64,000 nucleotides of DNA from Infirmifilum sp. NZ (GTDB taxonomy: Archaea > Thermoproteota > Thermoprotei > Thermofilales > Thermofilaceae). Location of the stretch: the NCBI RefSeq assembly GCF_022693705.1, contig NZ_CP094288.1:325185-389184 (forward strand). Direction: 5' to 3'. Below, in pieces: positions 11,939-33,892 of the stretch. The notes under the pieces were generated by a model. That model was not told the DNA's origin. It did no database searches and saw only the letters and a list, made by a program, of their open reading frames with translations. The stretch's first letter is position 1; every line of letters begins with the position of its first letter. The position numbers were made by a program, and so were the translations under genes.

Positions 11939-12657
11939 AGATCGCCACCCCTTATTTCCCCCTCAGCCACCTTCGCGAGGCGCCCGTCCCTAGGCTCGTA
12001 CACGTCGTATCTCCCCTCCACGAGCCTGATGAGGCCGTAGCCTACCGTCCTCCTTGCGCCGACCTGCACCATACCGTTAGCCAGGAGCTCAAGCAACTCC
12101 CTAAGGAGCCCACCTCTTTCATCTGCCGGTTGCGGGAAAACCCTTATGTTCACAATGTCCATCATGAACTTCCACCTCACGTAGGGCGCAACTTGCTCCT
12201 CGGTGTACAGGATCCCCGGTTGCGCGCCGCTGAAATCCCTGTTTATGCCGACCCCCGTCTTCACGAACGTGGGAGCAAAGAAGCCCTCAGGATAGGCGTC
12301 GTACACGCGCACGTGGCTCGCCAGCCTAGTGCTACCGAAAGTGCCGCAGATCACGCAGTAAGTCCCATCATCCCCCTCCTCCCTAGCCTCAGGGTCCCAT
12401 GGCGAGTGCACGGGCATGTTCCTGGCCCTGGCGATCGACTCGGCCAAGCTACGCAAAACGCCCTTCAGGCTACTCCCCGGTATGTAGGGTACGCTCTTCC
12501 CGTCGGCGAACACCACACGAAGCGGCGCGGTGTCCACAGTCGATCCGAGAGGTGCCTCCCTCCCAGCCCCCACCCTCAGCGGAGAGACGTTGACAAGCGT
12601 GCCGGTAATCCGGGTGAGCACCTCGAGTTTATCGAAGTCTGCGTAACGTCCCCTCAA
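11935..12657 (-). CDS. Type III Cas7-like RAMP (Csm3-like, likely catalytic)
   Basis: This 240-residue Csm3-like subunit has PLRVGAGREAPLGSTVD, with D42 in the catalytic position, then PYIPGSSLKGVLR, a CVICGTFGST zinc-cluster segment, KTGVGINRD and the C-terminal GARRTVGYG Gly-rich loop. It is close in sequence to its downstream neighbour. The stop overlaps the next start by 4 bp, and only 5 bp separate it from the small-subunit gene upstream. Confidence 0.92.
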   Translation of the reverse strand: MRGRYADFDKLEVLTRITGTLVNVSPLRVGAGREAPLGSTVDTAPLRVVFADGKSVPYIPGSSLKGVLRSLAESIARARNMPVHSPWDPEAREEGDDGTYCVICGTFGSTRLASHVRVYDAYPEGFFAPTFVKTGVGINRDFSGAQPGILYTEEQVAPYVRWKFMMDIVNIRVFPQPADERGGLLRELLELLANGMVQVGARRTVGYGLIRLVEGRYDVYEPRDGRLAKVAEGEIRGGDL

Positions 12658-17580: not shown

Positions 17581-17604
17581 CCCAACCCCTTGAGTTAAAC
17601 GTTA

Positions 17605-17840
17605 TTTTCAACAGTGAAAAAATCTGAAGTATTTAAGGTTTTCTCTGGGAAGACTGGGGTGGAACATAACCCTGTTATCTTATTAATCAAGTTTCATTAA
17701 CGTCGCGAACATTTAAAATACAGGGAGGGTTAGAAATCACAACCGCGGGAAAAGTCACCCTGCAAAAACGCGTGTTCGCACGGGAACAAGGAACAGGCTA
17801 AAAAGGAACATTTAAATACCCCCTCCCACATGGTTTAACG
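17605..17840 (+). promoter_or_regulatory. CRISPR leader 2
   Basis: This 236-bp leader is the inverted counterpart of leader 1. It begins with the palindrome TTTTCA-ACAG-TGAAAA (17605-17620), contains the conserved TTATTAATCAAG, AAAACGCGTGTTCGC and AAAAAGGAACA blocks, and has TATA-like ATTTAAATA at 17810-17818, about 22 nt before the first repeat. It ends TTTAACG against the repeat. Confidence 0.92.
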
Positions 17841-20800
17841 GCAGAAGTCAAGAGACAATTGAAAGTATCAGCGCGGGTATCGCCCTTTCCATGTACTTGC
17901 GGCTTTCAATGCAGAAGTCAAGAGACAATTGAAAGTTTGCGCCACTTCTCAGCCTCTGCCTTGTAGGCATCGAGCATCGGCAGAAGTCAAGAGACAATTG
18001 AAAGCTACGTCTACAAGAGTAACGCTACGCCCCATATCATCTATTTCGGCAGAAGTCAAGAGACAATTGAAAGTACAGCATCATGCGGCTCTATTTCATG
18101 CCAAGTCTCAGCAGCAGAAGTCAAGAGACAATTGAAAGTCTATAACCTCATGAGGAGTGTCTGCTCAGGAGTGTTGCAGAAGTCAAGAGACAATTGAAAG
18201 AAACCATATAAAAGTTGTAGCACCATTCGAGAGAGAAATGAGTGAGGCAGAAGTCAAGAGACAATTGAAAGGACGAATACCGCCACGGCAAGCGCCGTAT
18301 CCCACTAGCATAGCAGAAGTCAAGAGACAATTGAAAGTTATCAGGCATTAGCTCATCTAGCTCTCTCAGGAATCCCCGCAGAAGTCAAGAGACAATTGAA
18401 AGTTACGTAGGGTTCATGGACGGCGTGACGCACAGGGCTATCTTTGCAGAAGTCAAGAGACAATTGAAAGCCTCACCGCGTGTAATATCCTTCAATGTCT
18501 TAATGAATGTTACGCAGAAGTCAAGAGACAATTGAAAGCAGGTTCAACTACATATTTGCCTTTAGCATTTTGAATAGAGTTCAATGCAGAAGTCAAGAGA
18601 CAATTGAAAGAAACGCTTCGCATGCAAAACATGCAAAACCTAACCCCAAGCCAGAGCAGAAGTCAAGAGACAATTGAAAGGCGCAGAGCGAGCTCGCGCG
18701 GAAACTGGGACTCGTCGCAGAAGTCAAGAGACAATTGAAAGTACACATTTCACGTACGCGAAGACGCGGTGGCTCCGGGCAGAAGTCAAGAGACAATTGA
18801 AAGGACGCGGGGGGGCTCGGGCTGAAGCCCGCCGACTTCGTGGGCAGAAGTCAAGAGACAATTGAAAGTGTCTTAGACTTCAGCGTACCACGCTACCTTG
18901 AGATCCGCTGTGCAGAAGTCAAGAGACAATTGAAAGTCCCGTTATCTCGCTCACGCGCTGTAAAAATGCAAGAAAGCAGAAGTCAAGAGACAATTGAAAG
19001 GATGCAGTCATAGCTTGGAGCCTTGACCGCTTCGGCCGCACGAGCAGAAGTCAAGAGACAATTGAAAGCCGCACCGTAGTTCACCGAGGCGTTGACGAGG
19101 CTCGTGGGCAGAAGTCAAGAGACAATTGAAAGGGAAGACGCTACGCGCTTCAGCTCCCATACGATAGTGTTCTCAAGCAGAAGTCAAGAGACAATTGAAA
19201 GGGTTGTTCAGTTGCTACATGAGGTGGTGGTTCGTGAAGAGCGGCAGAAGTCAAGAGACAATTGAAAGAGACTATATGTTAGTGTTAATCGTGAGAGAAT
19301 ACTCAAGGTGAGCAGAAGTCAAGAGACAATTGAAAGTTTCACAGCTATTATCGAATGGGAGGTTTTTCCCTTACAATTGTTTGCAGAAGTCAAGAGACAA
19401 TTGAAAGAGCAGTACCATCAGTAGCGCACCCGCCAACGTTACGGCCTCCACAGAAGTCAAGAGACAATTGAAAGCCTCGAACTCGACGCGCTTAGGCTCA
19501 TCGGGGTCAACGAGCGCAGAAGTCAAGAGACAATTGAAAGACGTAGCTCGGGTTTGATTTCAATCAGCCAGTCAGCATCATCGGCAGAAGTCAAGAGACA
19601 ATTGAAAGGAAGTTCCCCGTGTTGCGTACGTAGAAGCCACCGGAGAGCAGAAGTCAAGAGACAATTGAAAGGCAGAGCACATTCAGAGGAGGGGCAGGCC
19701 CGTTGCGGTCTGCAGAAGTCAAGAGACAATTGAAAGTGCAAAGGACTACGCGTTGAACCCCTTCGCGCCGAAGCTTCCCTGGGCAGAAGTCAAGAGACAA
19801 TTGAAAGCAAAACACTGAACCCTGCACCATAGTCGTTCACGGTGAAAGTAGCAGAAGTCAAGAGACAATTGAAAGGACAGGGCCATTGACCAAGTGCTGA
19901 AGAACATTCAGGACACGCAGAAGTCAAGAGACAATTGAAAGAAGCACCCTAGGTAGGAGCGACTTTAGGTCGTTGTCGATGGTGCGCAGAAGTCAAGAGA
20001 CAATTGAAAGCGTGGTTGTAAAAAACGGTGGTGATAAAAAACCTGCAACTAGGTCCCCGCAGAAGTCAAGAGACAATTGAAAGCTCGTCGGCTATAACCT
20101 TAGCGTCGTCTGCCGTGAAGTAGCCGTAGGCTACGCAGAAGTCAAGAGACAATTGAAAGATCTAACATTTTTGAGATAGAGGAAGCCCCCGCGTCGCGGC
20201 AGAAGTCAAGAGACAATTGAAAGTGGCAGGAAGTCAACATGGGTTTCATCCTAGGCGTCACGCCTCTAGCAGAAGTCAAGAGACAATTGAAAGCCTCGTC
20301 TCCGCGTCCACTACGTCCTCGCCTCTACCTGCAGAAGTCAAGAGACAATTGAAAGTTTATTATTTTGTACGCATCGACTAAGTTCAAGCTAGCGCAGAAG
20401 TCAAGAGACAATTGAAAGAATAACCACGGTTGGGATGGTAATGAACAGCGGTATCCACTGCTTTTGCAGAAGTCAAGAGACAATTGAAAGATATCCTGCT
20501 CTCTGCAAAACCTGCAAAAGGTTAGGCCGCAGAAGTCAAGAGACAATTGAAAGTTCATTGTCTCACTGTGACTTGCACGGGCTTGCGTATATTCGCAGAA
20601 GTCAAGAGACAATTGAAAGGTGAGTTCTATCGGCTGGCTAGCACTCGGATATTACCTGGACACGATGCAGAAGTCAAGAGACAATTGAAAGCTAATATCC
20701 TAGCTGTAGGAACCGGTGACATAGCTAAGTGGGGGCTGGGAGCAGAAGTCAAGAGACAATTGAAAGCTGCTCGTGCGCTCCAGCGGCGACGACAACGGTC

Positions 20801-21573
20801 TCGAGCAGAAGTCAAGAGACAATTGAAAGACTGGTATTGCTGTTCTACGTCATCGCGCCCGTCGCGTACCTAGGCAGAAGTCAAGAGACAATTGAAAGGC
20901 GTGCGCTTGAAGCGGAAAGTCATCGTTTTCTTGTCGTACGCAGAAGTCAAGAGACAATTGAAAGTTGAGTTCATTAACGTGCTTGAGAGTTACCTTTCAA
21001 GCCTTGAGCAGAAGTCAAGAGACAATTGAAAGTCGTAATAGCTGGCGACGTGGATGTCCGCGCTCCCGTGCCCGACGAGCAGAAGTCAAGAGACAATTGA
21101 AAGGCAAATGTTTCCCTTACAGTCAAAAACGGTAATTTCTGAACGAAAGCAGAAGTCAAGAGACAATTGAAAGAGCCTCTTCGACAAAAGCTTGACGGCG
21201 TCCCAAGTAACCGCAGAAGTCAAGAGACAATTGAAAGGCGCGGTGACGGTGTTCACCTGAACGGCGTTCTCGTAGTAGCAGAAGTCAAGAGACAATTGAA
21301 AGCCCTTCAGCCCCCTCACCACGTCAACCTCGCTTTGCGAGCAGAAGTCAAGAGACAATTGAAAGATCGTCAAAAGAATGCGGAAATCCCCGCTCTTCAA
21401 AGCAGAAGTCAAGAGACAATTGAAAGCCTTGGAAGTAGGCGATGAACTGGCCCGGCTTCAGCTTGATGGAAGAAGTCAAGAGACAATTGAGAGTCCTACG
21501 AAGTATCCCCTCTTCGCACCGCGCGCGGCACCCGCATGCGTGTATGCTGAAAAAAGTCAAGAGACAATGAAGG
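17841..21573 (+). CRISPR. CRISPR array 2: 56 repeats, 55 spacers, read rightward
   Basis: Repeats of 25 nt begin GCAGAAGTC and end AATTGAAAG. I count 56 copies from 17841 to the degenerate last copies. One copy (19450) starts ACAG. The last two, at 21469-21493 and about 21549-21573, are decayed (ending TTGAGAG and AATGAAGG) and carry the GAA form seen in array 1. This degeneration marks the leader-distal end. It is the longest array in the window. All frames in it that repeat EVKRQLK or RSQETIE are repeat translation, not genes. Confidence 0.97.
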
Positions 21574-21647
21574 GGTTGTCCGACCGGGCTCCGCTTCCCG
21601 GGAGGGTTTAGGCGCGCGGGGCTTGGACGCAGCTAGCGTCTGATACG

Positions 21648-22487
21648 CTACTGCTGTGGGGTGCTTTGGGCTTCTTGCGCCTCACCGGTGTGCAGCTGCT
21701 CCACCTTCACTCTGCCGAAGCCGAGGGACCTGGACTGGCCGACGCCGGTGATCTCGGCGAGCTTGAGGGCGGCGAGGATTAGGGGGGCGTCCCTGGAGCC
21801 GTGGACGGCGTACAGCGCGTCGCCGATGAAGGCGGGGATCACCCTTCCCTCCCCTATGTCGACCCTGAGTGGCCTCGCCCTGGGGGCTCCGACGGCCTCG
21901 ATTGTCTTGGCGATGGTGTCGCTGGCGGGCCTCGTGTCCACGCTCGTTACGCGGGAGTAGGTCTTGAGGGCGCTGAGGGCGACGCGGGTGGGGGAGGGGT
22001 AGAGGACGTCGCTCCCGTAGAACATGAGGATCGTGGGGGAGAGGAACCTGACCCTTAGGACCGCCAGCCTGGGGGGCTTTGGGGGCTGCGGGGGCTCGGC
22101 CTGGGTGAAGGAAACACTAGCCACCTCGAACCTGCCGCTGGGGAGCTCGAGGTTGGGGTCCTGGGCGATAGAGAACATGTAGTCGGAGGCCAGGGCTTCG
22201 GAGTAGAAGTGGGCCGTGACGGTGATGGGCGTGCCAGCCTTGACCTCGCGCACCCTCGCCCTCCCGCTCCTCCCCACGATGCCGGTGAGGAGGTAGCCCT
22301 CCGCGCCGTCGACGGCGAGGGGCTCTACGGAGAACTGCTTCTCGGCCCTCTTCGGGAAGTCGATCCTGGCCCTGTGCAGGAACTCGTAGACGACCCTCAG
22401 CGCGAAGCTCCCGCTCCAGCTCACCACGGGGGTGTCTTGGCGGGGAATCAGGGTCAGGGAGACCGTGTAGATCCTCGGCTTCTCCAC
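21648..22487 (-). CDS. cas6: Cas6 pre-crRNA endoribonuclease
   Basis: This RAMP-fold nuclease has 279 residues from a GTG at 22487. The C-terminal EITGVGQSRSLGFGRVKVE is the Gly-rich loop that defines Cas6; the N-terminal half starts IYTVSLTLIPRQD. Cas6 cuts the repeat to leave the 8-nt handle ATTGAAAG. A longer frame to 22547 is open, but a strong TATA-like TTATATTTTA (about 22520-22530) would then lie inside it; the GTG lies where a leaderless transcript should begin. It is the only cas6 in the window, so it probably processes all four arrays. It faces array 2's old end and is divergent from the NurA-like gene. Confidence 0.92.
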   Translation of the reverse strand: MEKPRIYTVSLTLIPRQDTPVVSWSGSFALRVVYEFLHRARIDFPKRAEKQFSVEPLAVDGAEGYLLTGIVGRSGRARVREVKAGTPITVTAHFYSEALASDYMFSIAQDPNLELPSGRFEVASVSFTQAEPPQPPKPPRLAVLRVRFLSPTILMFYGSDVLYPSPTRVALSALKTYSRVTSVDTRPASDTIAKTIEAVGAPRARPLRVDIGEGRVIPAFIGDALYAVHGSRDAPLILAALKLAEITGVGQSRSLGFGRVKVEQLHTGEAQEAQSTPQQ

Positions 22488-22693
22488 GCGGCTGCACCGG
22501 CCGCTAACCAGACGCGCGGGTAAAATATAATGGTGACGGCAGTCCACGCGGGAAAATTTCCACGAAGAACTGCTATCCTCCCGAGATATAATCCGGTAAA
22601 ACTCCGTTTTTCAGAAACATTCACCTGTAACAGCCGAAGGCCGTTGAAACTTCACTTTCACTCATATCTTCATCAGGAATAAAAGTTCAGGTT

Positions 22694-22709
22694 CTGAAAT
22701 GTGTTTCAG
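22694..22709. promoter_or_regulatory. Palindrome at the start of the NurA-like gene (possible operator)
   Basis: CTGAAA-TGTG-TTTCAG is a perfect 6-bp inverted repeat with a 4-nt centre and covers the GTG start codon at 22701. Its core GAAATG-TG-TTTC resembles GAAATGCATTTC upstream of csa1 (27989-28000). A repressor site is possible. Confidence 0.4.
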
Positions 22710-24065
22710 GCGGTTGGGTTGCCGGCGGCGCCCGTGGCGTACGCGTCGAGGCTGGAGGGGGTGTTCAAGGCGTGCCTAGAGCTGTCGGCGGAGAGGGGCT
22801 ACTTCACCCCCTCGGAGCTGGCCGAGAGGCTCGGCGTGACGGAGAGGATGGCCAGGTACTACCTCATCGACCTGGTCTCGATCGGCGCGGTCGAGTACGC
22901 TGGGGGTGGGAGGTACAGGCTAACGGAGGGCGCCTCTAGGGCGGTTTTGAGGGCCGAGGTGTTCGGAGCCGACTCGCAGCTGGAGAGCGTGGTCGCTGAG
23001 ACGTTGCTGAGCAACCCCGAGGTCGCGGACGCGCTCTTCGAGAGGGTCTACAGGCTGAGGAAGAGGCTGGAGGCCCTAGGCGACAGGGGCGCACTCAGGA
23101 GGGCCTTCGAGTCCCTAGCGGGGGACGTGCTGGTCGGGGACAGGGCGATTCTCTCTTCGAGGGAGCTTGAGCCGTCGAGGCCCGCTACGCTGGCGGGGGC
23201 TGCCTACGAGGCGGTGCTGAGGGACTACGCGCTGGCCGGCAGCATCGTCATCGCGGTTGCGTACCTCGCGGCGTGCGTGGCGCACGTCCAGCTGGACGAG
23301 GCGGGGCAGGTCTCCGGGGTGCGGTTTGTGAGGCGGCCGGACCTGAGGAGCTTCAGGGGCTCGCAGCCCTTTGACGAGGGCGTGCTGGAGCTGGCCGTGG
23401 AGAGGCCCGAGCTGCTGGCGGCGGGCAGGAGGCTCGCGGCGAGGTTCATCGTCGCCAGGATGACCTACGAGGCCATGAGGAGCCAGGTGGAGTCCGAGCC
23501 CCCTGAGCTGGCCCTGCTCGGCGGGAGCCTCTGGCCGCACGGCTTCGTGGTCTGGGGTAGCAGGGAGCTGCAGAAGCTGAAGGAGGGCATGGAGTCCGCG
23601 TTCCTCGACCTCCTCGAAGCCGCCTCCTCGAGGGGGGTCACGCTCGCCGGCGTTGTCCTGGTCCCGAGGGACAGCAGGCTGTTCGCGGCCGTGAGCGGGA
23701 GGCTGGGGCTGAGCGGGCCCGCGGTCAGCGACTTCGCGCTCCTCTCCTACGTCCTCGAGCCCTGGGAGTACACGGCGCCTATGAGCCTCGAGAGGGAGAG
23801 GGGGAAGAGCGTCAGCGGGTGGTACGAGTTCTACTGGAAGGTCGGCGAGAGGCTCGTGAAGGTCGAGTACGTGACGCGCTCCGACCCCCTAGCCGTCCAG
23901 GAGGAGATCGTCCGGGCGCTCAAGGGCAACTTCTACGCCCGCGGCGAGCCCCTGGGAGTGGCGGAGGCGAAGGCGGAGGCCGGCAGGCTCGTCAGGCACC
24001 TCGAGGCGTGGTTCAGGGGGGCTCTGGCGGTGATCGCACGTGGAGAAGCTAGGGGTAGTTATTAG
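22701..24065 (+). CDS. Winged-helix plus NurA-like nuclease domain protein
   Basis: The protein has 454 residues. Residues about 15-75 form a winged helix (YFTPSELAERLGVTERMARYYLIDL). From about 265 a NurA-like domain follows, with LALLGGSLWPHGFVV where NurA usually has an Asp-Gly-Ser motif, then GVVLVPRDSRLF and a C-terminal VKVEYV...DPLAVQEEIVRAL. NurA is a 5'-3' nuclease that works with HerA in end resection. The usual Asp of the first motif is not obvious here, so activity is uncertain. It overlaps the HerA-like gene by 26 bp. The pair sits inside the cas cluster, which suggests a defence or adaptation link. Confidence 0.72.
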   Translation: MFQAVGLPAAPVAYASRLEGVFKACLELSAERGYFTPSELAERLGVTERMARYYLIDLVSIGAVEYAGGGRYRLTEGASRAVLRAEVFGADSQLESVVAETLLSNPEVADALFERVYRLRKRLEALGDRGALRRAFESLAGDVLVGDRAILSSRELEPSRPATLAGAAYEAVLRDYALAGSIVIAVAYLAACVAHVQLDEAGQVSGVRFVRRPDLRSFRGSQPFDEGVLELAVERPELLAAGRRLAARFIVARMTYEAMRSQVESEPPELALLGGSLWPHGFVVWGSRELQKLKEGMESAFLDLLEAASSRGVTLAGVVLVPRDSRLFAAVSGRLGLSGPAVSDFALLSYVLEPWEYTAPMSLERERGKSVSGWYEFYWKVGERLVKVEYVTRSDPLAVQEEIVRALKGNFYARGEPLGVAEAKAEAGRLVRHLEAWFRGALAVIARGEARGSY

Positions 24066-25401
24066 CAGGAACCCGCCGACCGAGCTCGCGTTCGAGTTCG
24101 AGGTCACCGAGCCGGGCTCGGTCGCCACGGGGGACTTCATCGAGGTCCCCGTCGAGGGGGGCACGCTCCTAGCCAGGGTCGTGAGCGTCCAGGCGATCAA
24201 CGCGGCGCTCAGCGAGGTCGGGGTCGTCTCGGAGGCCAGCGAGTACGGCCTCAGGCTGCCAGCGTCCACCCTACTCGCCGCCTCCGAGGTGCAGGTCGCG
24301 AGGGCTAGGGCGCTCGAGGTAGTGACCGCTTCGGGCGAGCTGGTCCCGCCGATGCTCCCGCCCAGCCCTGGGACGCCGGTCTACCCGGCTTCGAGGGACT
24401 ACCTGATGAGGCTGCTCGGCCTCAGAGAGGGAGGGGTGAGGCTCGGGGAGCTCTGGCGCGTGGGCGTGGAGGCGCTCCTCGACGCGGACACGCTCGTCAG
24501 GCACCACGTGGCCGTAGTGGGGGCGACGGGCTCGGGGAAGTCGCACACCCTGGGCGTGCTGGCCGAGGAGCTGCTCGACCACGGCTACCCGGTCGTCGTG
24601 GTGGACGTGCACGGCGAGTACGGCTTCCTGGAGGGGGAGGGCTACAGGGTGAGGAGGGCGAGGATCACCGAGGTGCTCCTGAAGCCCGGCCTCCTGAGCC
24701 CCGACGCCGTGGCGGAGGCCACGGAGATGACCGAGGTACAGCGGGACCTCCTGCACCTCGCCTACGAGGAGAGCGACGGCGTCGAGCTGAGCGACATCAT
24801 ATCCAGCGTCGAGAGCACCGCCGAGAGGTACGGGTTCAGGAGGGAGACGGTGATAGGGGTCGTGAGGAGGCTCAGGACGCTGAAGGCTATGGGCATCTTC
24901 ACCGGGGGCGGCGGGGCAGGGCCACCAGAGGAGCTCGTGGAGGAGGGCAGGGCCACAATCCTCGACGCCGGGCTCGGGCTCCCGGACAGGGCTACTGGGG
25001 CGCTCGTGGGCTCCATCGCCTGGGCGCTCTTCGAGCTGAGGAGGACCAACGATGTGCCCGGCTTCGCCCTTATCGTCGACGAGGCGCAGAGGTTCCTCCC
25101 GCAGGACGAGGACGTCTTCTCGAAGAGGGCGCTACGCGTCATGGCCAGGGAGGGGAGGAAGTTCGGGGTGGGGCTGATGGTAGCGAGCCAGCGCGTGGTG
25201 GGCCTCGACAAGGACGTGCTCAGCCAGTGCGGGACCAAGATCGTCCTGAGGATGGACAGCGCCACCGACCTCGCCATGCTGAAGCCTCTCCTCGGCTCCA
25301 GCCTGCGCCTCGTCCCGCACCTGCCCCGCGGCATCGCCCTGGTCGCCGGAGTAGCGGTCAGGTACCCTGTGCTCGTCAAGGTGAGGCCTAGGAAAGGCTA
25401 G
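24040..25401 (+). CDS. HerA-like hexameric ATPase/DNA translocase
   Basis: This 453-residue protein has an N-terminal HAS-barrel-like beta domain (to about 100). The FtsK/HerA ATPase follows, with Walker A GATGSGKSHT (161-170), DVHGEYGFL after it, Walker B ALIVDEAQRFLPQ (about 345-357), GREGRKFGVGLMVASQR sensor and C-terminal PHLPRGIALVAG. HerA pumps DNA into NurA. The GTG start overlaps the NurA-like gene, so the two are translationally coupled. The stop overlaps the end of the convergent cas4 by 4 bp. Confidence 0.9.
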   Translation: MEKLGVVISRNPPTELAFEFEVTEPGSVATGDFIEVPVEGGTLLARVVSVQAINAALSEVGVVSEASEYGLRLPASTLLAASEVQVARARALEVVTASGELVPPMLPPSPGTPVYPASRDYLMRLLGLREGGVRLGELWRVGVEALLDADTLVRHHVAVVGATGSGKSHTLGVLAEELLDHGYPVVVVDVHGEYGFLEGEGYRVRRARITEVLLKPGLLSPDAVAEATEMTEVQRDLLHLAYEESDGVELSDIISSVESTAERYGFRRETVIGVVRRLRTLKAMGIFTGGGGAGPPEELVEEGRATILDAGLGLPDRATGALVGSIAWALFELRRTNDVPGFALIVDEAQRFLPQDEDVFSKRALRVMAREGRKFGVGLMVASQRVVGLDKDVLSQCGTKIVLRMDSATDLAMLKPLLGSSLRLVPHLPRGIALVAGVAVRYPVLVKVRPRKG

Positions 25402-25985
25402 CCCAGCTGCCTGCAGACGCGCCTGTAGTAGCAGTAGCCGCACTTCCAGCTAGCCTGCCTCGGGGGCGGCTTAGGGGCCTCGAGGTCGCGCCTCATCCGC
25501 TGGGCGAGGGAGGCCACGTAGCTCCTGAGGGAGGGCGTCACCCGCACTTCCACCCACCTGCCCGAGCCCACGATCAGGACGGAGTCCGCCGTGGCCCTGA
25601 GGGTCTCCTCCGCCAGGAGGGCGTACGCTACGCCCTGGGCTAGGACGTGGCGAAGCCTGCCGTAGAGCGAGCGCCGGGAGACGTCGCTCAGAGCCTTGAC
25701 CTCCACAACCCTGACGAGGCTGCCGCGCCTCAGCACCGCGTCCGCGTAGCCGTGGAGCCCCAGCCTCCTGCTCCTCACGTAGAGGTTCCTCAGGAGCTCC
25801 CAGCCCGCGGGCGGCCTCAGCTCCGGAAGCCCCGCCTCCCCCGCGGCCCTCATGGAGGGGGTGACGTAGTCCCCGCCGAGCCTGAGCTGGAGGTACGCGT
25901 ACCTAGGGCAGTAGGCGTACTCCTTGAGGAGGGCGACGGGGAGCAGACCCGCCTCCTCCAGGCTATACGACGACACGCGCCTCAC
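25398..25985 (-). CDS. cas4: Cas4 adaptation nuclease
   Basis: This 195-residue RecB-like nuclease has an N-terminal YAYCPRYAYLQL (first Fe-S Cys), a nuclease core GYADAVLRRGSLVRVVEVKAL with the D and EVK residues, and a C-terminal CGYCYYRRVC cluster giving the other three Cys of a 4Fe-4S site. Cas4 trims pre-spacers and selects PAM. It is the last gene of csa1-cas1-cas2-cas4; its start overlaps cas2 by 23 bp. Confidence 0.93.
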   Translation of the reverse strand: MRRVSSYSLEEAGLLPVALLKEYAYCPRYAYLQLRLGGDYVTPSMRAAGEAGLPELRPPAGWELLRNLYVRSRRLGLHGYADAVLRRGSLVRVVEVKALSDVSRRSLYGRLRHVLAQGVAYALLAEETLRATADSVLIVGSGRWVEVRVTPSLRSYVASLAQRMRRDLEAPKPPPRQASWKCGYCYYRRVCRQLG

Positions 25986-26244
25986 CCCCGAGCGGGGCCA
26001 TGGGCCTCCCGGCTACCAGCGCGCGCTCGAGGCTCTCGTCGGGGACGACCAGCACGATGACGCTGTCGCCCTCCTGGGTGACGTGCCTCTGCGCCACCCT
26101 GTAGACGTCCTTCGCGAACGCGTAGCCGCCCCTGCCCACGAAGACGCTCCGCTGGACCCGGGTGAGGGACAGCCCGAGCAGGCGCGAGGAGAGCCTCAGC
26201 CTGTCGGCGTCGTCGCTTATGTCGTACACGACCACGACCCTCAT
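25963..26244 (-). CDS. cas2: Cas2 adaptation protein
   Basis: This 93-residue ferredoxin-like protein starts MRVVVVYDISDD, with the conserved Asp after the first strand, and continues LTRVQRSVFVGRG, a typical Cas2 segment. Cas2 dimers bridge Cas1 dimers for spacer integration. It overlaps cas1 by 4 bp and cas4 by 23 bp. Confidence 0.94.
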   Translation of the reverse strand: MRVVVVYDISDDADRLRLSSRLLGLSLTRVQRSVFVGRGGYAFAKDVYRVAQRHVTQEGDSVIVLVVPDESLERALVAGRPMAPLGGEARVVV

Positions 26245-27203
26245 CCCATCCTCGCCCTGAAGCCCACGTACTCCTCAAGCTCGCCCCTGAGGTAGCTGGC
26301 GAGCTCGGACGCCTTCCTGACGATGATGTCGTCCAGCGTCGCCCTCCCCGCTCTGTAGGGGAACTCCCTCCCCAGCGCATCCAGGACTGCTGCAGCCACC
26401 CTCCTCCTCGAGTCCCTGTCCAAGATCCCGTTCGAGGCCGTGAGCACGAGCCGGGCGAAGATCAGGGCCTTGTCGACGACCGGCCTGAACTGCTCGATAA
26501 AGTCGTAGACCAGGGTCCTCTGCCCGCTCTTCATCGCGTGCATGAAGCCCGCGTAGGGGTCGAGGCCGACGAGGAGGAGCGCCCTCTCGCACCTCGCGTA
26601 GAGTATCCCGTAGCCGTAGTTGAGCGCCATGTTGAACACGTCGAGCCCCTGCGGGTCCCTGCCCGTGAAGCCGTAGCTCTCGGGGAGCAGCTTCGCGACA
26701 GCCCCCCAGTACACCCTCGCGGCCTGGGCCTCGAGCTCCCTGATCTCCGCGGCGTCCGGCCTCGCGCGCCTGATCTCGTCCGCCAGGGCCTCAACCCTCT
26801 CAGCCTCAATCGCGAAGTAGTCGTCACGCCTCGACTTCGCCGCGTACCTCAAGATGCCCGCCTGGTTGCGCACCTTCGCCTCCACGATGCTCTTCGCCGC
26901 CTTAAGGCCCCGCCCGTCCACGATCGCCCTGTACTGCGCCACCCTCGTCGCGGCGGTCTTGTTGATCGTCGGCGGGTAAACGCGGGCCACCGGGTGCCCG
27001 TGGGCCCCGAGGAGCGTGACGTCGACCCCGTGGGCCGCGAGGGCCTGCAGGGCTGCGGAGGTGATGCTCGCCGCCCTCGTCGCGATCACCACCGAGTCGT
27101 AGACCGCCGGGGAGAGCTCCACAGCCTCGCCGTCGCTAGTCCGCAGCACCACCCTGCCCCTCTCCACCCTCACCCTGCACGGCTTAGACACGAAGAGCAG
27201 CAT
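26241..27203 (-). CDS. cas1: Cas1 integrase
   Basis: This protein has 320 residues from the ATG at 27203, which begins the canonical MLLFVSKP strand; upstream codons are open to 27272 but lack family likeness. It has an N-terminal beta domain (ELSPAVYDSVVIATRA, ALAAHGVDVTLL), then the helical catalytic domain with DVFNMALNYGYGILYARCERAL, LDPYAGFMHAM and LVYDFIEQFRPVVDK, containing the Glu, His and Asp metal ligands. The start lies inside the 3' end of csa1 (20-bp overlap). Confidence 0.95.
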   Translation of the reverse strand: MLLFVSKPCRVRVERGRVVLRTSDGEAVELSPAVYDSVVIATRAASITSAALQALAAHGVDVTLLGAHGHPVARVYPPTINKTAATRVAQYRAIVDGRGLKAAKSIVEAKVRNQAGILRYAAKSRRDDYFAIEAERVEALADEIRRARPDAAEIRELEAQAARVYWGAVAKLLPESYGFTGRDPQGLDVFNMALNYGYGILYARCERALLLVGLDPYAGFMHAMKSGQRTLVYDFIEQFRPVVDKALIFARLVLTASNGILDRDSRRRVAAAVLDALGREFPYRAGRATLDDIIVRKASELASYLRGELEEYVGFRARMG

Positions 27204-27975
27204 GGCACACCGCCCTCCAGGGGCACCACTCCGGGCAGTCGTCCGCCACCCCAGGGTCCTCGCGCGACTCAACGACCCGCGCCACGTAGTCCCTAGCCTC
27301 GAGGAAGCGGCCCCTCACCGAGTCGTCGAGGACGACGGTCCTCCAAGTTATCCTCCCGCCCGCGAACTGCGCCACCACCCCGTAGTTCACGGGGTTGCTC
27401 GTCAGCGCCTCTACCGCGAGCGCGTAGGCGGTCACCGCCAGCTCCTTGCGCTCCAGCCCGTTCCCCGTGACGAAGTCCACTGGCACGCCGCCCACCAGCA
27501 GGTCGGGCCTAACCGTGTCCGAGAGCCCCACCAGGCTACCCGGCAGCTCCGGCTCGACCGCCACAGGTAGCCTGGCGCCGCCCACGCCCCACGCGCTAGC
27601 CAGGGCGAAGGCCTCGTCGAAGACCCTCGACGCGGCCGCCCTTAGGTCCCTCGGAGCCCCCCTCAGCAGCCTAGCCTTAGCCCTCGACGCCTCCTCCACG
27701 CTCACCCGGCCCCTCAGCGCCAGCCTGAACGGCTCGAGGAAAGCCTCGTGCAGGAGCCTCCCCACCTGCAGCACCCCGTCGCCCTGAGGCCTCAGCCCCC
27801 TGACCCTCCTCAGGTACGCGTCGCGCTTCGTCGGGCAAGGCGAGGAAACCTCGCTCACAGTCGGCATGAAGCCGTGCCTCGCCCCCACCTGCTCGAGCCT
27901 CCAGCCCCTCAGCTCCACCACGAGGTCACCGGCCACGACGCCCCTCACCTTACCCCAGACAGTCCACGGGAACAT
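27184..27975 (-). CDS. csa1: Csa1, Cas4-family adaptation protein
   Basis: This 263-residue protein has the Csa1 signature SPCPTKRDAYLRRV (about 45-58), a PD-(D/E)XK-like core (VRPDLLVGGVPVDFVTG, with LERKELAVTAYALAVE) and a C-terminal Cys cluster CPEWCPWRAVC for an Fe-S site. In crenarchaea csa1 heads the csa1-cas1-cas2-cas4 adaptation operon, as here. The core EVK is degenerate (DFVTG), so nuclease activity may be lost. The promoter lies in the 116 bp between csa1 and leader 3. Confidence 0.9.
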   Translation of the reverse strand: MFPWTVWGKVRGVVAGDLVVELRGWRLEQVGARHGFMPTVSEVSSPCPTKRDAYLRRVRGLRPQGDGVLQVGRLLHEAFLEPFRLALRGRVSVEEASRAKARLLRGAPRDLRAAASRVFDEAFALASAWGVGGARLPVAVEPELPGSLVGLSDTVRPDLLVGGVPVDFVTGNGLERKELAVTAYALAVEALTSNPVNYGVVAQFAGGRITWRTVVLDDSVRGRFLEARDYVARVVESREDPGVADDCPEWCPWRAVCHAALRV

Positions 27976-27988
27976 AGTTTTCCACTAG

Positions 27989-28000
27989 GAAATGCATTTC
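27989..28000. promoter_or_regulatory. Palindrome upstream of csa1 (possible operator)
   Basis: GAAATGCATTTC is a perfect 12-bp palindrome 14 bp before the csa1 start, flanked by TTTTCC-ACTA-GGAAA. Csa3 proteins are known to regulate crenarchaeal adaptation promoters, and csa3 is 3 kb away. Site identity is inference. Confidence 0.4.
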
Positions 28001-28103
28001 AAACGGTACAAATAAATCTAACCCACGAGAGCATAAAGAGAGACACAAGCCAAGACCTTTTCGAAACATTTTGCAAAAGCACCAGCAGAACGTCTTAAGT
28101 TTA

Positions 28104-28338
28104 TTTTCAACAGTGAAAAATTTAGCTATATTTAAGGTTTTCTCTGGGAAGAGAATGCTGGAACATAACCGAGTTATCTTATTAATCAAGTTTCATTAGC
28201 GATGCGAACATTTAAAATAGAGGGAGGGTTAGGAATCACAACCACGGGAAGAGATAAGCCTGAAAACGCGTGTTCGCACGAGAACAAGGAACAGGCTAAA
28301 AAGGAACATTTAAATAGCCCCTCCCACAACGCTTAACG
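28104..28338 (+). promoter_or_regulatory. CRISPR leader 3
   Basis: This 235-bp leader runs from the palindrome TTTTCA-ACAG-TGAAAA (28104-28119) through TTATTAATCAAG, AAAACGCGTGTTCGC and AAAAAGGAACA blocks to TATA-like ATTTAAATA at 28308-28316 and TTAACG against the first repeat. It is closely similar to leader 2 across its whole length and lies divergently from csa1. Confidence 0.92.
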
Positions 28339-30893
28339 GCAGAAGTCAAGAGACAATTGAAAGTTAAACATACCGTTATACTACGACCCCGAGACGCGCA
28401 AATTCCGCAGCAGAAGTCAAGAGACAATTGAAAGGTGATCGCCTACGACGCCGTGCGGGACCGAGTCCTTGCCCGCAGAAGTCAAGAGACAATTGAAAGT
28501 CCGCGTCCGCTAGGCTGGCCTGGCCCTGCAGGTAGGCGTCGCAGAAGTCAAGAGACAATTGAAAGCATCAACCCCGTAATCAGCTTCTCAGCCTCACTGT
28601 CACGTGCGCAGAAGTCAAGAGACAATTGAAAGGCGTTGTCCTTCGGCACCGTGCAGAAGGGACAGCGCGCGCAGAAGTCAAGAGACAATTGAAAGTTCTG
28701 AGCCCGCTTCGGGGGGCGGGCGATGAGAGAGGGCAGAAGTCAAGAGACAATTGAAAGTCACGCCTAATCTCCTCAAGCTTCTTTCTCACATCATCAGGCA
28801 GCAGAAGTCAAGAGACAATTGAAAGTAATGCTACTCAGCTCTCGGTTAAGGACTATCTGAAGAAATACGCAGAAGTCAAGAGACAATTGAAAGCGGATAC
28901 ACGGTTGACGTGGACTCGGCTCTCGGCAAGATCCGCAGAAGTCAAGAGACAATTGAAAGATCGGCTATCGCATTTATCTCCTGCTGGGAGTAGCCCATCT
29001 GCCTCAGCAGAAGTCAAGAGACAATTGAAAGTCAGTTGCGGTTATGCATGCGAGCGAGGATGTCCGAGCAGAAGTCAAGAGACAATTGAAAGTGCCATCT
29101 CCTGGGCTGTTTTCCTGCTGCTCAGCAGGAGGCTCCTGAGCAGAAGTCAAGAGACAATTGAAAGAAGAGCGGCATAGCGGAGGCGGGCGGCGCGAGGGTG
29201 CTCGCGCGCAGAAGTCAAGAGACAATTGAAAGACTCGTCATCTAGACACCCTCTTGAACTGGTAGACCCGGCAGAAGTCAAGAGACAATTGAAAGTCTAA
29301 GCAGAGGGGTAACGAGGTTGTGATCGCGACCAAGGATCTGCAGAAGTCAAGAGACAATTGAAAGCAGTACTTCTTCTTCCACTCCACCAGCTGGCGAACC
29401 TGCAGAAGTCAAGAGACAATTGAAAGTTACCCTTCCAGGCGAGCACCACGGGTATCACGCGGTTCATGACGTGCAGAAGTCAAGAGACAATTGAAAGGGC
29501 TCTCGAAGCGCGTCCTCGAGGTATGGGTTGACTCGCAGAAGTCAAGAGACAATTGAAAGTCGCCTACAGTTGTCCAGTTGTACCTAGGCAACAGCTCCCG
29601 CAGAAGTCAAGAGACAATTGAAAGAATGTGCAAACAGACCCCTCAACTGCCACGCGTGTTGTACGCAGAAGTCAAGAGACAATTGAAAGACTATAAAACA
29701 CAATTCCTTTTTTTACCCATCTTTTCTCAGGTGAGGCAGAAGTCAAGAGACAATTGAAAGCCTTCTACTTCCTTCTACTACTACTTCCATAGGAAGACCT
29801 CGAAAGCAGAAGTCAAGAGACAATTGAAAGACCGCTTTGAATCACAACGATTTTGTAAACATAACTTATAGGCAGAAGTCAAGAGACAATTGAAAGATAG
29901 AATAGATGGGCCTTCTCCCCTGCGAGTCTATCCCTACGGGCAGAAGTCAAGAGACAATTGAAAGGCCAAGGTTGCGGGCACCTAGAATGACCCGCAACTG
30001 GATCCAGCAGAAGTCAAGAGACAATTGAAAGCTCAAGAAGCGTGAGAGCCAACTTGAGCTGCTCTAGGAGAGCAGAAGTCAAGAGACAATTGAAAGCTGC
30101 TCAGGCCCAACACCGCGGTGAACATCAAAGTCACGGCAGAAGTCAAGAGACAATTGAAAGTAGGCGATGTATAGGTAGGTCAGCGCGGCTACGGCGGCTG
30201 CCGCGCAGAAGTCAAGAGACAATTGAAAGACGGAGCTATCCATATCCACATGGTGCTCTTCGGTGTGAGGAGGAAGTCAAGAGACAATTGAAAGTCTTAT
30301 GAAATCCGATCGGTTCACGTAAATGCCGGCCTCGGAGGAAGTCAAGAGACAATTGAAAGTGGGTTGTCTCCCTGAGTGGCAAAATGACAAAGCTCTGCGA
30401 GGAAGTCAAGAGACAATTGAAAGCTACGACTGGGACAACACCTCCGCCATCGTCGCGCTGGGAGGAAGTCAAGAGACAATTGAAAGGGGTCAATCTCCTC
30501 TAGGGGAGCTATTCGTGAGAGAAGGAAAAGAGGAAGTCAAGAGAGAATTGAAAGGACAGCCGTGTTACTCTGGGTGCTTGAGAACGTGGGGCAGAGGAAG
30601 TCAAGAGACAATTGAAAGGATCCCTAGTTCTTACGCGCCGAGACGTTTTATATGTTTATTTGAGGAAGTCAAGAGACAATTGAAAGAACTCCCTGTTGAA
30701 AGCGAAGCCGCTGGGGTGACGGTGGATGGGTGAAGAAGTCAAGAGACAATTGAAAGAAGCTCGCTGAGGTTCCACATGACGTTGTAGACGGTCTCGAAGA
30801 AGTCAAGAGACAATTGAAAGTGTCGGATAGGGAGAGCTTGCCGTGCTCGGAAAGCAGCTTTCAATTGTGAAGAAGTCAAGAGACAATTGAAAA
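28339..30893 (+). CRISPR. CRISPR array 3: 39 repeats, 38 spacers, read rightward
   Basis: The first 29 repeats have the GCAGAAGTC form. From 30270 seven repeats (30270, 30335, 30399, 30462, 30530, 30594, 30662) begin GAGGAAGTC, and the last three (30732, 30796, 30869) begin GAAGAAGTC as in array 1. The copy at 30530 has a G for C (GAGAGAATT), and the last copy ends TTGAAAA. Spacers 17-20 (29427-29664) are identical to spacers 2-5 of array 4. Confidence 0.97.
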
Positions 30894-30959: not shown

Positions 30960-31583
30960 GTGGGCAGGCTGTTTGTCGTAACGCTGGGTTTTGACGAGAA
31001 GTTCGCTGTGCGTGCTCTGATGAGGAGGGGGGTTGGTAGGGATGACGCGGTAGTGGTCTTTCTTCCACGCGAGGAGTCTAGGGACGAGAGGGCGGCGAGG
31101 GCGCTGGAGGCGCTGAGGGGTATCGTCGAGGGCCTAGTTCAGGGCGGGTTGAGGGAGGTAGAGCTGAACGTTGGGGACTTCGTCTCCGCGGTGGCGGCTG
31201 TCAGGTCGACGGTCCGCGAGTACGGTGCCTCCGAGGTCTACGGGAGCCTGAGCGGGGGGATGAGGGCGCTCGTGGTGGAGGTCCTGCTGGGGCTCATGAT
31301 GCTCGAGGGGGTCAGGGTCTTCGTCGACGTTGACCTCGAGTCGCTGAGGGGCTACGTCTCGATACCGCTACACGTCTTCAAGGCGCCGAGGAGGGATAGG
31401 TGGATTTCCATCCTCAGGGCGCTGGAGGAGGCGGGGGGTGTGAGGGGCGTCTCGGCGGTAACGGGCTACTCGCCGGCCACGGTGAGCAGGGAGATTAAGC
31501 AGATGAAAGCCCTGGGACTCGTGGACGAGGAGCTCAGGTTGACCGAGGCCGGTAGGCTCTACCTGCGAATACACTCCGCTTGA
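30960..31583 (+). CDS. csa3: Csa3, CARF plus winged-helix CRISPR regulator
   Basis: This 207-residue protein starts with the Csa3 opening GRLFVVTLGFDEKFAVRALMRRG, then the CARF ligand loop VYGSLSGGMRALVVEVLLG (about 92-110), and a C-terminal winged helix (SAVTGYSPATVSREIKQMKALGLV, about 160-185). Csa3 regulates adaptation genes and arrays in Sulfolobales, with cyclic oligoadenylate sensing by the CARF part. It sits just after array 3 and before the type I-A genes. The GTG start follows a short AT-rich stretch. Confidence 0.92.
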   Translation: MGRLFVVTLGFDEKFAVRALMRRGVGRDDAVVVFLPREESRDERAARALEALRGIVEGLVQGGLREVELNVGDFVSAVAAVRSTVREYGASEVYGSLSGGMRALVVEVLLGLMMLEGVRVFVDVDLESLRGYVSIPLHVFKAPRRDRWISILRALEEAGGVRGVSAVTGYSPATVSREIKQMKALGLVDEELRLTEAGRLYLRIHSA

Positions 31584-31775
31584 TGTTTCACGATTCAGGA
31601 AAGCCTGGTCTCAAGGCTCGCTTCTTCGTCTCGACTTCCTCAAAAATCCTGCCTCTCAGCGGCTACCTGCGTTTCATCTATCTGGAACATTCTCAGTCTT
31701 ATTTCACTAAGATTGAACACTCTATGAAACAAAAAGCTTATTAACGGCCTTGCAGCCTTATTGAGTGGTGAAAGC

Positions 31776-32147
31776 ATGGGCTCGAAATGGGTTGATGTGA
31801 AAGAGTTCGAGGGGATAGTCAAGATGCTGCGCTTCTTCGCGGCCATCCGGAACTACAGCTTCGTCGACCGCGTCGGCAACGCCCTTAACCCCGAGACCGT
31901 CGAGGTCGCTATCAGGGACGCGCTGAGGACTTTCACCTCGATCTACGACTCCGCCGCGTCCGACGAGAAGGGTTTCCGCTACTTCGAGCTCGAGGAGGCC
32001 GGAGCTAAGAGGAAGGTCTACCTGCCTGCGAAGCCGCGCGAGGATGAGGTCGCGAGCTTCGTGAGGGCGGTCTGGGAGGATGTGGGCGTTGCTAGGCGCG
32101 TGGCGATCATGGCTATGAGCGTCCCGGCGAGGGAGGCTGAGGGGTGA
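31776..32147 (+). CDS. csa5: Csa5, type I-A small subunit
   Basis: This helical protein has 123 residues from ATG 31776 (a TTG at 31761 is also in frame). It contains FEGIVKMLRFFAAIRNYSFVDRVGNALNPE and FVRAVWEDVGVARRVAIMAM segments typical of Csa5, the Cas11-like small subunit of type I-A Cascade. TATA-like CTTATTAA lies about 30 nt upstream. It is the first gene of the interference operon and overlaps cas7 by 4 bp. Confidence 0.85.
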   Translation: MGSKWVDVKEFEGIVKMLRFFAAIRNYSFVDRVGNALNPETVEVAIRDALRTFTSIYDSAASDEKGFRYFELEEAGAKRKVYLPAKPREDEVASFVRAVWEDVGVARRVAIMAMSVPAREAEG

Positions 32148-33145
32148 TGGGCGTGCTGTCGTTCCTGAGCCTTGGGGTTAGGTTCGAGGCGAACGTCGAG
32201 GCCCTGAACATGGTTGAGGTCAGCGGCAACTACGCGAGGCACAGGAGGGTACCCTACATCATCACCGAGGGCGGGAAGCCCAAGGTAGTGTACGTGCCGG
32301 CAGTCAGCGGGGAGAGCCTGGCGCACGCGTACCAGGAGCTGCTCGCCGAGGAGGCTAAGTCGCTCAACCTGCCTGTGTGCTCGTACTGCTCAGCCGGGGA
32401 GTTCCTCAAGTCGATGGACGAGGAGCACGCGAGCGAGAAGTTCGGTGGCAAGGTCCCGAAGCTCAGCCAGAGGGCGAAGAAGGAGGAGCTGATCAGGGTC
32501 GTGAACGAGATAGAGGCTGGGATCGTGAGGGGGTGCGTGGTCGAGGACGTAGGGGGGTTCCTCTACGCGGAGAAGCCCCCGGTGAAGAGGACGTCGAGGT
32601 TCGCCGTGAGCTACGCGCTCCCCATCAAGTCGATGGCGACCTACGCGACGCTGGAGCCCCAGCTCCACGCGCGCCACGCTAGGACCACTGGGGAGAGGAG
32701 GGAGGGGGCGGCCGAGCAGATGATATACTACGTGGAGAGCGGCACGGCGATCTACGCGTTCACCTTCAACCTCGACCTGGCCGGGATCGGAGTGAGCAGC
32801 TACTCCGGGGCGCAGCTCGTCGAGGACGTGGGCAAGAGGCGGCTGGCCGCCGTCAGGGCCCTGTACAGGATGCTGTCTTCCCAGGGCTTCGGCGCGAAGC
32901 TCTCGCGCTTCTTTCCAGTGGGCGGGATAGTCTCGCTGGTCGCGACGCTCACTGAGAGGCCTTTCACGGTCACCTCGCCCATATACGACGACTTCGCCAC
33001 CTCGACGAGGCAGAGGCTCGAGAGGGTGAAAGCCACCTTCGGCGAGAAGGCCCTCTACTTCGAGATGGGGGCCGAGGGCTACAGGACCCCTGAGGACGTG
33101 CTGAGCGCCGTGATCGAGGCCCTCAAGCAGGAGGGCACGGTGTAG
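32144..33145 (+). CDS. cas7: Cas7 (Csa2), type I-A backbone
   Basis: This 333-residue DevR/Csa2-type Cas7 has FLSLGVRFEANVEALNMVE at the N-terminus, YIIT and PAVSGESLAHAYQELLAEEA, a mid CSYCSAGEF insertion, RTSRFAVSYALPIKS, and SGTAIYAFTFNLDLAGIG near 205. Six or more copies coat the crRNA in type I Cascade. Its start overlaps csa5 by 4 bp; a 12-bp gap precedes cas5. Confidence 0.93.
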   Translation: MMGVLSFLSLGVRFEANVEALNMVEVSGNYARHRRVPYIITEGGKPKVVYVPAVSGESLAHAYQELLAEEAKSLNLPVCSYCSAGEFLKSMDEEHASEKFGGKVPKLSQRAKKEELIRVVNEIEAGIVRGCVVEDVGGFLYAEKPPVKRTSRFAVSYALPIKSMATYATLEPQLHARHARTTGERREGAAEQMIYYVESGTAIYAFTFNLDLAGIGVSSYSGAQLVEDVGKRRLAAVRALYRMLSSQGFGAKLSRFFPVGGIVSLVATLTERPFTVTSPIYDDFATSTRQRLERVKATFGEKALYFEMGAEGYRTPEDVLSAVIEALKQEGTV

Positions 33146-33157
33146 GGTGCGTGCGCA

Positions 33158-33892
33158 TTGGGCGCGGCTTTTTCTCTACGCTACGTCCTAGCCGTTCTGA
33201 GGCCGCACGGCGTGGTGTCCCTGAGGGTTCAGCCGCAGAGCAAGGCCCGCGTCAGCCTGAAGCACCCACCCCCAAGCTCCCTGCTTGGCGCCCTCTCCTA
33301 TTCCCTCGCCCGGGAAGACGGAAGGGAGGTCGTGTTCAGGGACGGGCACGTCGAGCCGAGGAGCGCCGAGTTCAGGGACTTAATCGAGCACGTAGCTGTG
33401 GCCGTCTCGGGTGAGGGCTACTCCTACGGCTCCCTCTACAAGATAAACGAGTACTACCGCGGGGAGGCCCTTCAGGCCGTGACGGCCCTCATGAACACCT
33501 TCCTCTACGGGGAGGGCGACTTCGCCATAAAAGCCCTGTTCGTTCTCAGCGGGAGGTGCGACGGGGACTGCGCCAGGCTCGTCGAGAGGGCAGCGTGGGG
33601 GATCTCGAGGCTCGGCTCGAGGGAGTCGCTGGTGAGCGTGGAGCGCGTCTCCTCTGGTGTAGGCAGGGTGCTCGCGGTCGACGAGGTGGAGACGGAGTAC
33701 TCCTTCGAGTGGAGGGAGGGGGTTAGCCTGGAGGGCTCCTACGACGTGGTCTTCACAGCCGACTGGCGCTCGGTGCTGGGCAATATAGCCTCCGCGCCGA
33801 GAATTAGGGTCGTCTACCCCAGAGGCAGGGTCAGGGTGAGGGGTAAAGGCATGAAGGTCTTCCAGTTCGACGAGGGGGTGGTTGTCCTTTGA
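33158..33892 (+). CDS. cas5: Cas5a, type I-A Cascade subunit
   Basis: This 244-residue RAMP has HGVVSLRVQPQSKARVSLKHPPPSSLLGALSYSLA, the N-terminal strand and helix of Cas5a, with a C-terminal strand RIRVVYPRGRVRVRGKGMKVFQFDEGVVVL. It should hold the crRNA 5' handle. TTG or GTG starts are possible just after cas7; its stop overlaps cas8a by 4 bp. Confidence 0.88.
   Translation: MGAAFSLRYVLAVLRPHGVVSLRVQPQSKARVSLKHPPPSSLLGALSYSLAREDGREVVFRDGHVEPRSAEFRDLIEHVAVAVSGEGYSYGSLYKINEYYRGEALQAVTALMNTFLYGEGDFAIKALFVLSGRCDGDCARLVERAAWGISRLGSRESLVSVERVSSGVGRVLAVDEVETEYSFEWREGVSLEGSYDVVFTADWRSVLGNIASAPRIRVVYPRGRVRVRGKGMKVFQFDEGVVVL

What the first reader, a model, noticed from the sequence alone, without database searches (positions are those of the whole stretch)
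17841..30893. Repeat stratigraphy: GAA to GAG to GCA from old to new ends
In array 3 the 29 leader-side repeats begin GCAGAAG, the next seven GAGGAAG, and the oldest three GAAGAAG. In array 2 the leader side is GCA, and the two oldest copies are GAA-like. Array 1 is entirely GAA. Since new repeats copy the leader-proximal one, these steps record mutations of the first repeat. Arrays 2 and 3 appear to have passed from the array 1 form to the GCA form, either independently or by leader-end replacement.
Basis: partly seen in the sequence, partly recalled or inferred. Interest (0 to 1): 0.75.

Follow-up and report, generated by a model that had tools for sequence, protein, structure and literature searches.

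The report
Layered CRISPR repeats, partly swapped between arrays
In a heat-loving archaeon (Thermofilum) the repeats of its CRISPR immune-memory arrays change type in clean layers from old end to new end, and an exactly shared block of four memories shows that neighbouring arrays also swap pieces, so the layers record copying of the first repeat plus exchange between arrays.

Summary
Array 3 (28339-30893) has 29 GCA, 7 GAG and 3 GAA repeats in that order from the leader. Array 2 (17841-21574) has 54 GCA-class copies and then two GAA-like ones; array 1 is all GAA (32); array 4 is all GCA (33). Outgroup Thermofilum genomes make GAA ancestral, including an array at array 3's own cas locus.

The reading as a serial record of first-repeat mutations is only partly right. 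GAG to GCA needs two substitutions with no intermediate. The same A-to-C change tops three arrays. The leaders are mosaic. Most directly, array 3 spacers 17-20 and array 4 spacers 2-5 are one identical 288-nt block bounded exactly by repeats, so these arrays exchange segments. In NZ13, GAG and GAA also alternate, so the order is not a one-way clock.

I conclude that the strata record the state of the leader-proximal template repeat, and that GCA probably spread between arrays by recombination. Both processes are known in archaeal CRISPR: a clear natural example, not a new kind.

The parts
2391..4460 (-). CRISPR array 1: 32 repeats, all GAAGAAG; terminal repeat ends GATTG (leader at 4460, old end at 2391)
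4461..4703 (-). Leader of array 1 (homologous to the other three leaders)
   Evidence: coordinates approximate at the distal end
17597..17840 (+). Leader of array 2
17841..21426 (+). Array 2, new stratum: repeats 1-54, GCA (one ACA singleton at 19450-19474)
21469..21574 (+). Array 2, old stratum: last two repeats, GAAGAAG...GAGAG (21469-21493) and AAAAAAG...GAAGGG (21550-21574)
28101..28338 (+). Leader of array 3; mosaic, with segments most like A4, A1 and A2 in turn
28339..30229 (+). Array 3, newest stratum: 29 GCA repeats
30270..30686 (+). Array 3, middle stratum: 7 GAG repeats (one internal variant at 30530-30554)
30732..30893 (+). Array 3, oldest stratum: 3 GAA repeats, terminal one ending AAAA
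29402..29689 (+). 288-nt block (5 repeats, spacers 17-20 of array 3) identical to array 4 spacers 2-5, with no extension beyond the bounding repeats
40258..40545 (-). Same 288-nt block in array 4 (spacers 2-5)
38457..40612 (-). CRISPR array 4: 33 GCA repeats, one internal variant (repeat 9), no degenerate terminal repeat
40613..40857 (-). Leader of array 4
26241..27272 (-). cas1, the only Cas1 of the genome; presumed integrase for all four arrays
25398..25985 (-). cas4
27184..27975 (-). cas4/csa1
21648..22547 (-). cas6 (weak, below curated cut-off)
30960..37429 (+). csa3 and type I-A interference genes (csa5, cas7, cas5a, cas8a2, cas3', cas3'')
4730..12657 (-). Type III effector genes (Cas10/Csm1-like and Cas7-like RAMPs, Csx10-like; III-D-like, most below curated cut-offs)

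Best explanation
The four arrays are one family of CRISPR arrays with homologous leaders, apparently served by a single type I-A adaptation module. Each new spacer is inserted at the leader and copies the first repeat, so whatever sequence the first repeat has at a given time is inherited by the repeats added afterwards, and the array keeps ordered blocks of former templates (GAA, then GAG, then GCA in array 3). The template changes partly by point mutation and partly by recombination between arrays through their near-identical repeats and leaders. The last step to GCA in arrays 2, 3 and 4 most likely came by such exchange from one array that first acquired it. Shown: order of strata, GAA as the ancestral state, block exchange between arrays 3 and 4, mosaic leaders. 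Inferred: that the GCA step itself was an exchange, the donor, and the direction.
For: Perfect blocks in array 3 and trailer-end GAA in array 2. Same arrangement in NZ13 array a, whose leader-proximal half nearly equals array 4's (12 GCA, then 7 repeats with A at position 2). Outgroup arrays GAA throughout, one syntenic with array 3 between csa1 and csa3. Array 3 spacers 17-20 equal array 4 spacers 2-5 as an exact 288-nt repeat-bounded block; in array 4 it sits one spacer from the leader, as expected if the transfer involved the then leader end. Leader mosaicism: A4/NZ13-a identical over 35 consecutive polymorphic sites (p = 5e-4), A3/A4 14 sites (p = 1e-3), A3/NZ13-c 14 (p = 2.5e-3), PHI-type test p = 0.008. 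GAG to GCA differs at two adjacent bases with no intermediate repeat. All three repeat types occur as the present first repeat of some array (GAA: A1; GAG: NZ13 b; GCA: A2-A4), so donors exist.
Against: The last 10-15 leader bases differ among GCA arrays (ACATGGTTTAACG, ACAACGCTTAACG, ACACCGTTTAACG), so no donor leader end came along with GCA. The shared block lies inside the GCA stratum of array 3, nine spacers newer than the GAG/GCA border, so it did not itself introduce GCA. The per-pair mosaic p values need correction for 21 pairs and only the best two (0.01 and 0.02) survive; the leaders are short. No relative shares spacers with this genome, so no border could be dated.
Confidence: 0.62

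Rival explanations
1. Only in-situ point mutations of each array's first repeat, passed on by copying: A3G and later A2C plus G3A in array 3, A2C separately in arrays 2 and 4. No exchange contributed to the strata.
For: The template-copy model explains ordered blocks without recombination. Leader bases next to the first repeat remain array-specific. Changes concentrate at positions 2-3, which may be weakly constrained.
Against: It needs the same A-to-C change at least three times, a double change GAG to GCA with no trace of an intermediate, and ignores that arrays 3 and 4 demonstrably exchanged a block and that leaders are mosaic.
Confidence: 0.25
2. Array 3 is a fusion product: the GCA, GAG and GAA parts are pieces of different arrays joined by recombination inside repeats, and the order of types reflects joins, not age.
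For: Repeat-bounded transfer is proven for one block. At another locus the last GCA repeat of NZ13 array c is a hybrid: 5' part GCAGAAGTC as in the array, 3' part ACGATTG as in the resident repeat of the window genome.
Against: Array 2 and NZ13 array a show the same old-to-new order (GAA-like at the trailer, GCA at the leader), as growth predicts and random joins do not. The hybrid repeat is explained as well by internal deletion between a GCA repeat and the terminal repeat.
Confidence: 0.08
3. Selection or a change in the adaptation machinery favoured GCA: a new Cas1 or leader-binding partner used GCA first repeats better, so the arrays converged on it.
For: In Sulfolobus islandicus the region -25 to +7 around the leader-repeat junction, which includes repeat positions 2-3, is the Cas1-binding motif (PMC9456107).
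Against: Array 1 is GAA to its first repeat in the same cell with the same single Cas1. T. uzonense-like arrays of 46 and 110 repeats grew with GAA and a similar Cas1.
Confidence: 0.04
4. Assembly artefact: repeats confused the assembler, producing the shared block or the ordered strata.
For: Identical 25-nt repeats are classic misjoin points; reads were not available. NZ13 (IDBA-UD, short reads) shows suspicious triplicated first spacers in two arrays.
Against: The window genome is a single contig, 99.9% complete. Blocks of 29, 7 and 3 in age order and degenerate terminal repeats are not what misjoins give. The strata recur in an independently assembled strain.
Confidence: 0.03

Closest known systems
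Polarized CRISPR array growth with duplication of the leader-end repeat (Barrangou 2007 and later, reviewed in PMC8047081)
   Same: New units at the leader end copy the leader-end repeat; old, degenerate repeats at the trailer end; the repeat state is inherited in order.
   Different: Usually only the terminal repeat differs; here three successive repeat types are kept as long blocks in one array and recur across several arrays.
Spacer-repeat regions recombining between CRISPR loci within a cell in Sulfolobus (PMC4390879, citing Lillestol 2006 and 2009)
   Same: Blocks bounded by repeats shared between different arrays of one genome; conserved ~230-bp leaders.
   Different: Here the exchange coincides with mosaic leaders and with a repeat-type switch, so it bears on how repeat types spread. 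The earlier loci were not re-examined here.
Array collapse and repopulation in Legionella pneumophila type I-F (Deecker & Ensminger 2020, PMC7056967)
   Same: Recombination between first and last repeats leaves a locus with leader and one repeat, as at the fifth locus of this genome (C1:1489772).
   Different: Its scar (all repeats carry the terminal repeat's sequence) is absent in arrays 1-4.

Membership tests
CRISPR array of the I-A type | Near-identical direct repeats (25 nt) with unique spacers of similar length | tested here: met
   32, 56, 39 and 33 repeats; spacers 36-56 nt, unique apart from the shared block
CRISPR array of the I-A type | Conserved leader on one side, degenerate repeats at the other | tested here: met
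   Homologous ~240-nt leaders; degenerate ends in arrays 1-3, not in array 4
CRISPR array of the I-A type | Type I-A cas genes and cas1 adjacent | tested here: met
   single Cas1. Cas2 was not identified by profile: the ORF 25982-26380 in the cas2 position has no match
CRISPR array of the I-A type | Active spacer acquisition and crRNA production | not testable with these tools
   Needs experiment; exact searches for three of the four shared spacers in IMG/VR and a BLAST of array 3 against phage records found nothing
Template inheritance of the leader-proximal repeat | Multi-copy repeat variants are contiguous and extend leaderward from their first appearance | tested here: met
   Arrays 2, 3 and NZ13 a; exceptions: NZ13 b alternates GAG/GAA, and T. 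uzonense-like array b has a two-copy variant (repeats 73-74) followed leaderward by the normal type
Recombination between CRISPR loci | Identical multi-spacer block in two arrays with borders in repeats | tested here: met
   288 nt, 29402-29689 and 40258-40545, no extension
Leader-end replacement | Donor leader end and first repeat transferred together | tested here: inconclusive
   NZ13 array a has an A1-like distal and A4-identical proximal leader half, but within the window genome the leader bases next to GCA differ between arrays
Array collapse and repopulation | All repeats carry the sequence of the terminal repeat | tested here: not met
   Arrays 1-3 have terminal repeats unlike their consensus; array 4 lacks a degenerate end, so it is uninformative

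The most novel reading that the evidence does not exclude
Repeat types spread through all arrays of a cell by short gene-conversion tracts at the leader-repeat end, so that arrays evolve in concert and the strata record sweeps of repeat types between arrays rather than a mutational clock of each array.
Probability: 0.35. Interest if true: 0.55.

Novelty: new member of a known kind. Interest (0 to 1): 0.38.

Why it matters
Repeat variants are usually treated as noise or as terminal decay. Here they form a readable record alongside the spacers and show, with a shared block as an independent marker, that arrays of one cell exchange segments. If repeat types spread by exchange, tools that date spacers or reconstruct ancestral arrays one locus at a time will misread such arrays, and repeat strata offer a simple marker for finding exchange in other genomes with several arrays.

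Tried and rejected
Shared spacers with relatives: none between this genome and NZ13 or the T. uzonense-like genome, only short chance matches, so no border could be dated or bridged. Protospacers: exact searches for three of the four shared spacers in IMG/VR and a BLAST of array 3 against phage records found nothing, so targets and PAM remain unknown; the repeat core is also absent from viral contigs. GAG as a necessary intermediate between GAA and GCA: rejected, because GAA to GCA is one step and array 2 shows no GAG. Leader replacement carrying GCA from array 2 or 4 into array 3: rejected in its simple form, because the bases next to the repeat differ. NZ13 array a as a true positional orthologue of array 4: rejected; leader and ~500 bp upstream are related, trailer and wider neighbourhood are not. 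The hybrid terminal repeat of NZ13 array c was first read as proof of leader-end replacement; I withdrew this because internal deletion between a GCA repeat and the terminal repeat gives the same hybrid. Direction of the A3/A4 block transfer: undecidable, because all repeats around it are identical. Spacer G+C does not differ between strata.
Full report
What is there. The window is 64 kb of a single-contig 1.83-Mb Thermofilum genome, placed in the same species as the metagenome-derived genome Thermofilum sp. NZ13 (NZ13 is described in PMC5823990). It holds four CRISPR arrays with a common 25-nt repeat: array 1 (minus, 4460 to 2391), array 2 (plus, 17841-21574), array 3 (plus, 28339-30893) and array 4 (minus, 40612 to 38457), with 32, 56, 39 and 33 repeats. 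Every other copy of the repeat core in the genome is accounted for by one stray at C1:1489772. Between the arrays lie one adaptation module (csa1, cas1, cas4, with an unrecognised ORF in the cas2 position), cas6, a type I-A interference operon with csa3, and a III-D-like effector set. The genome has one Cas1.

The observation. Read from the leader, array 3 is 29 GCA, 7 GAG, 3 GAA; array 2 is 54 GCA-class repeats (one ACA) then two GAA-like; array 1 is all GAA; array 4 all GCA. With fixed composition the array 3 order has a chance of 1.3e-11, and a runs permutation is at its floor. These figures were computed after seeing the pattern and test order only, but the blocks are plain.

Polarity. In a T. 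uzonense-like genome (G011; 1.63 Mb, two arrays, in keeping with the description of T. uzonense in PMC4673724) both arrays begin GAAGAAG apart from a terminal copy and isolated variants. The longer one (110 repeats) sits between csa1 and csa3, the position of array 3. A further species (G015) has GAAT in all 84 copies. GAA is therefore ancestral. In NZ13 an array with array 4's leader-proximal half has 12 GCA repeats at the leader and 7 decayed repeats at the trailer, all with A at position 2.

Exchange between arrays. Array 3 spacers 17-20 and array 4 spacers 2-5 are identical and in the same order. The shared stretch is 288 nt, exactly five repeats and four spacers, and does not extend by one base on either side. 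Four identical acquisitions in the same order are not credible, so a segment moved between arrays with crossovers inside repeats. In array 4 the block is one spacer from the leader, which suggests that it moved when it was at or near the leader end (inference). The direction cannot be told.

Mosaic leaders. The ~240-nt leaders of the four arrays and three NZ13 arrays are homologous. Their similarities change along the length: array 3 is most like array 4 in the distal part, like array 1 around -104 to -66 and like array 2 near -56 to -30, while NZ13 array a is A1-like distally and A4-identical over 35 consecutive polymorphic sites proximally. Permutation p values are 5e-4 for the best pair and 1e-3 for A3/A4; after correction for 21 pairs these two remain near 0.01 and 0.02, and a PHI-type test gives 0.008. 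Recombination among leaders is supported but the sequences are short.

How the strata most likely arose. Copying of the first repeat at each acquisition is established for CRISPR (PMC8047081) and explains the blocks. What changed the first repeat is the open point. GAA to GAG is one substitution. GAG to GCA is two, with no intermediate repeat; GCA heads three arrays here and two in NZ13; and arrays do exchange segments. I therefore favour exchange for the GCA step (about 0.6) over three or more independent mutations (about 0.25). Against it, the 10-15 leader bases next to the first repeat remain specific to each GCA array, so a replacement that carried the donor leader end is unlikely; crossovers at the junction or within the arrays are needed. 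The shared block itself is nine spacers newer than the GAG/GCA border and did not bring GCA in.

Limits of the 'old to new' series. NZ13 array b, at the left edge of the island, reads GAG, four GAA, GAG, GTG, GAG, GAG and two decayed copies from the leader, and a two-copy variant in the longer T. uzonense-like array is followed leaderward by the normal type again. So repeat types can return, and GAA to GAG to GCA is not a clock.

A fifth locus. The stray repeat at C1:1489772 follows a complete but decayed leader (a gap of 26 nt against the other leaders) and is followed by an old spacer and a decayed repeat. At the same place NZ13 has a 29-repeat array (28 GCA plus a hybrid last repeat, GCAGAAGTC joined to the resident ACGATTG) with a leader closer to array 2 (0.90) than to its positional counterpart (0.69). 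The locus has thus collapsed in the window genome, or was lengthened or refilled in NZ13. The hybrid repeat shows recombination between repeats of different type but does not distinguish import from internal deletion.

Context in NZ13. NZ13 lacks I-A Cas7, has type I-D Csc2 and one Cas1 that is 28% identical to the window's, between two arrays with another repeat. Its three arrays of the present family therefore seem to be orphans, which may explain their decayed repeats.

Comparison with what is known. Ordered repeats from leader-end copying, degenerate trailer repeats and recombination of spacer-repeat regions between loci in Sulfolobus are all described (PMC8047081, PMC4390879). I found no paper in the searched library that describes several successive repeat types kept as strata in one array and shared across arrays, but the library lacks most subscription journals, so this is weak evidence of novelty. 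I rate it a new member of a known kind, of moderate interest.

Noticed in passing
L042:9767-9791 (genome C1:1489766-1489790): A fifth, collapsed CRISPR locus: decayed leader, a single repeat GAAAATGTCAAGAGACGATTGAAAG, one old spacer and a decayed repeat; NZ13 has a 29-repeat array at the same place.
   Followed up: partly
L032/L033 (NZ13 contig 1, about 222-247 kb) versus window 838-43931: Between matching flanks NZ13 carries a type I-D cas module with two arrays of another repeat (GTTTAAAACAAGCAAGACTAAGAG) instead of the I-A and III-D-like island; it has no I-A Cas7, so its arrays of the window's family look orphaned.
   Followed up: partly
L032:17759-16489 and L032:10855-10140: In two NZ13 arrays the first three spacers are identical copies of each other (and spacers 11 and 12 of the array in L034); either slippage duplication or a short-read assembly artefact.
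   Followed up: no
window 25982-26380 (-): 132-aa ORF in the cas2 position between cas1 and cas4 with no match in NCBIfam or Pfam; Cas2 may be divergent or annotated in another frame.
   Followed up: partly
window 22701-25401 (+): A HerA-like helicase gene and a weakly NurA-like gene stand between cas6 and the adaptation genes.
   Followed up: no
window 38457 (old end of array 4): Array 4 ends with an intact GCA repeat and no degenerate terminal copy, which suggests loss of its old end.
   Followed up: no
L036 repeats 73-74 of the array at 8605-15833: Two adjacent copies of a variant repeat (GTCGAG) followed leaderward by the normal type: a short stratum that did not persist as template.
   Followed up: no
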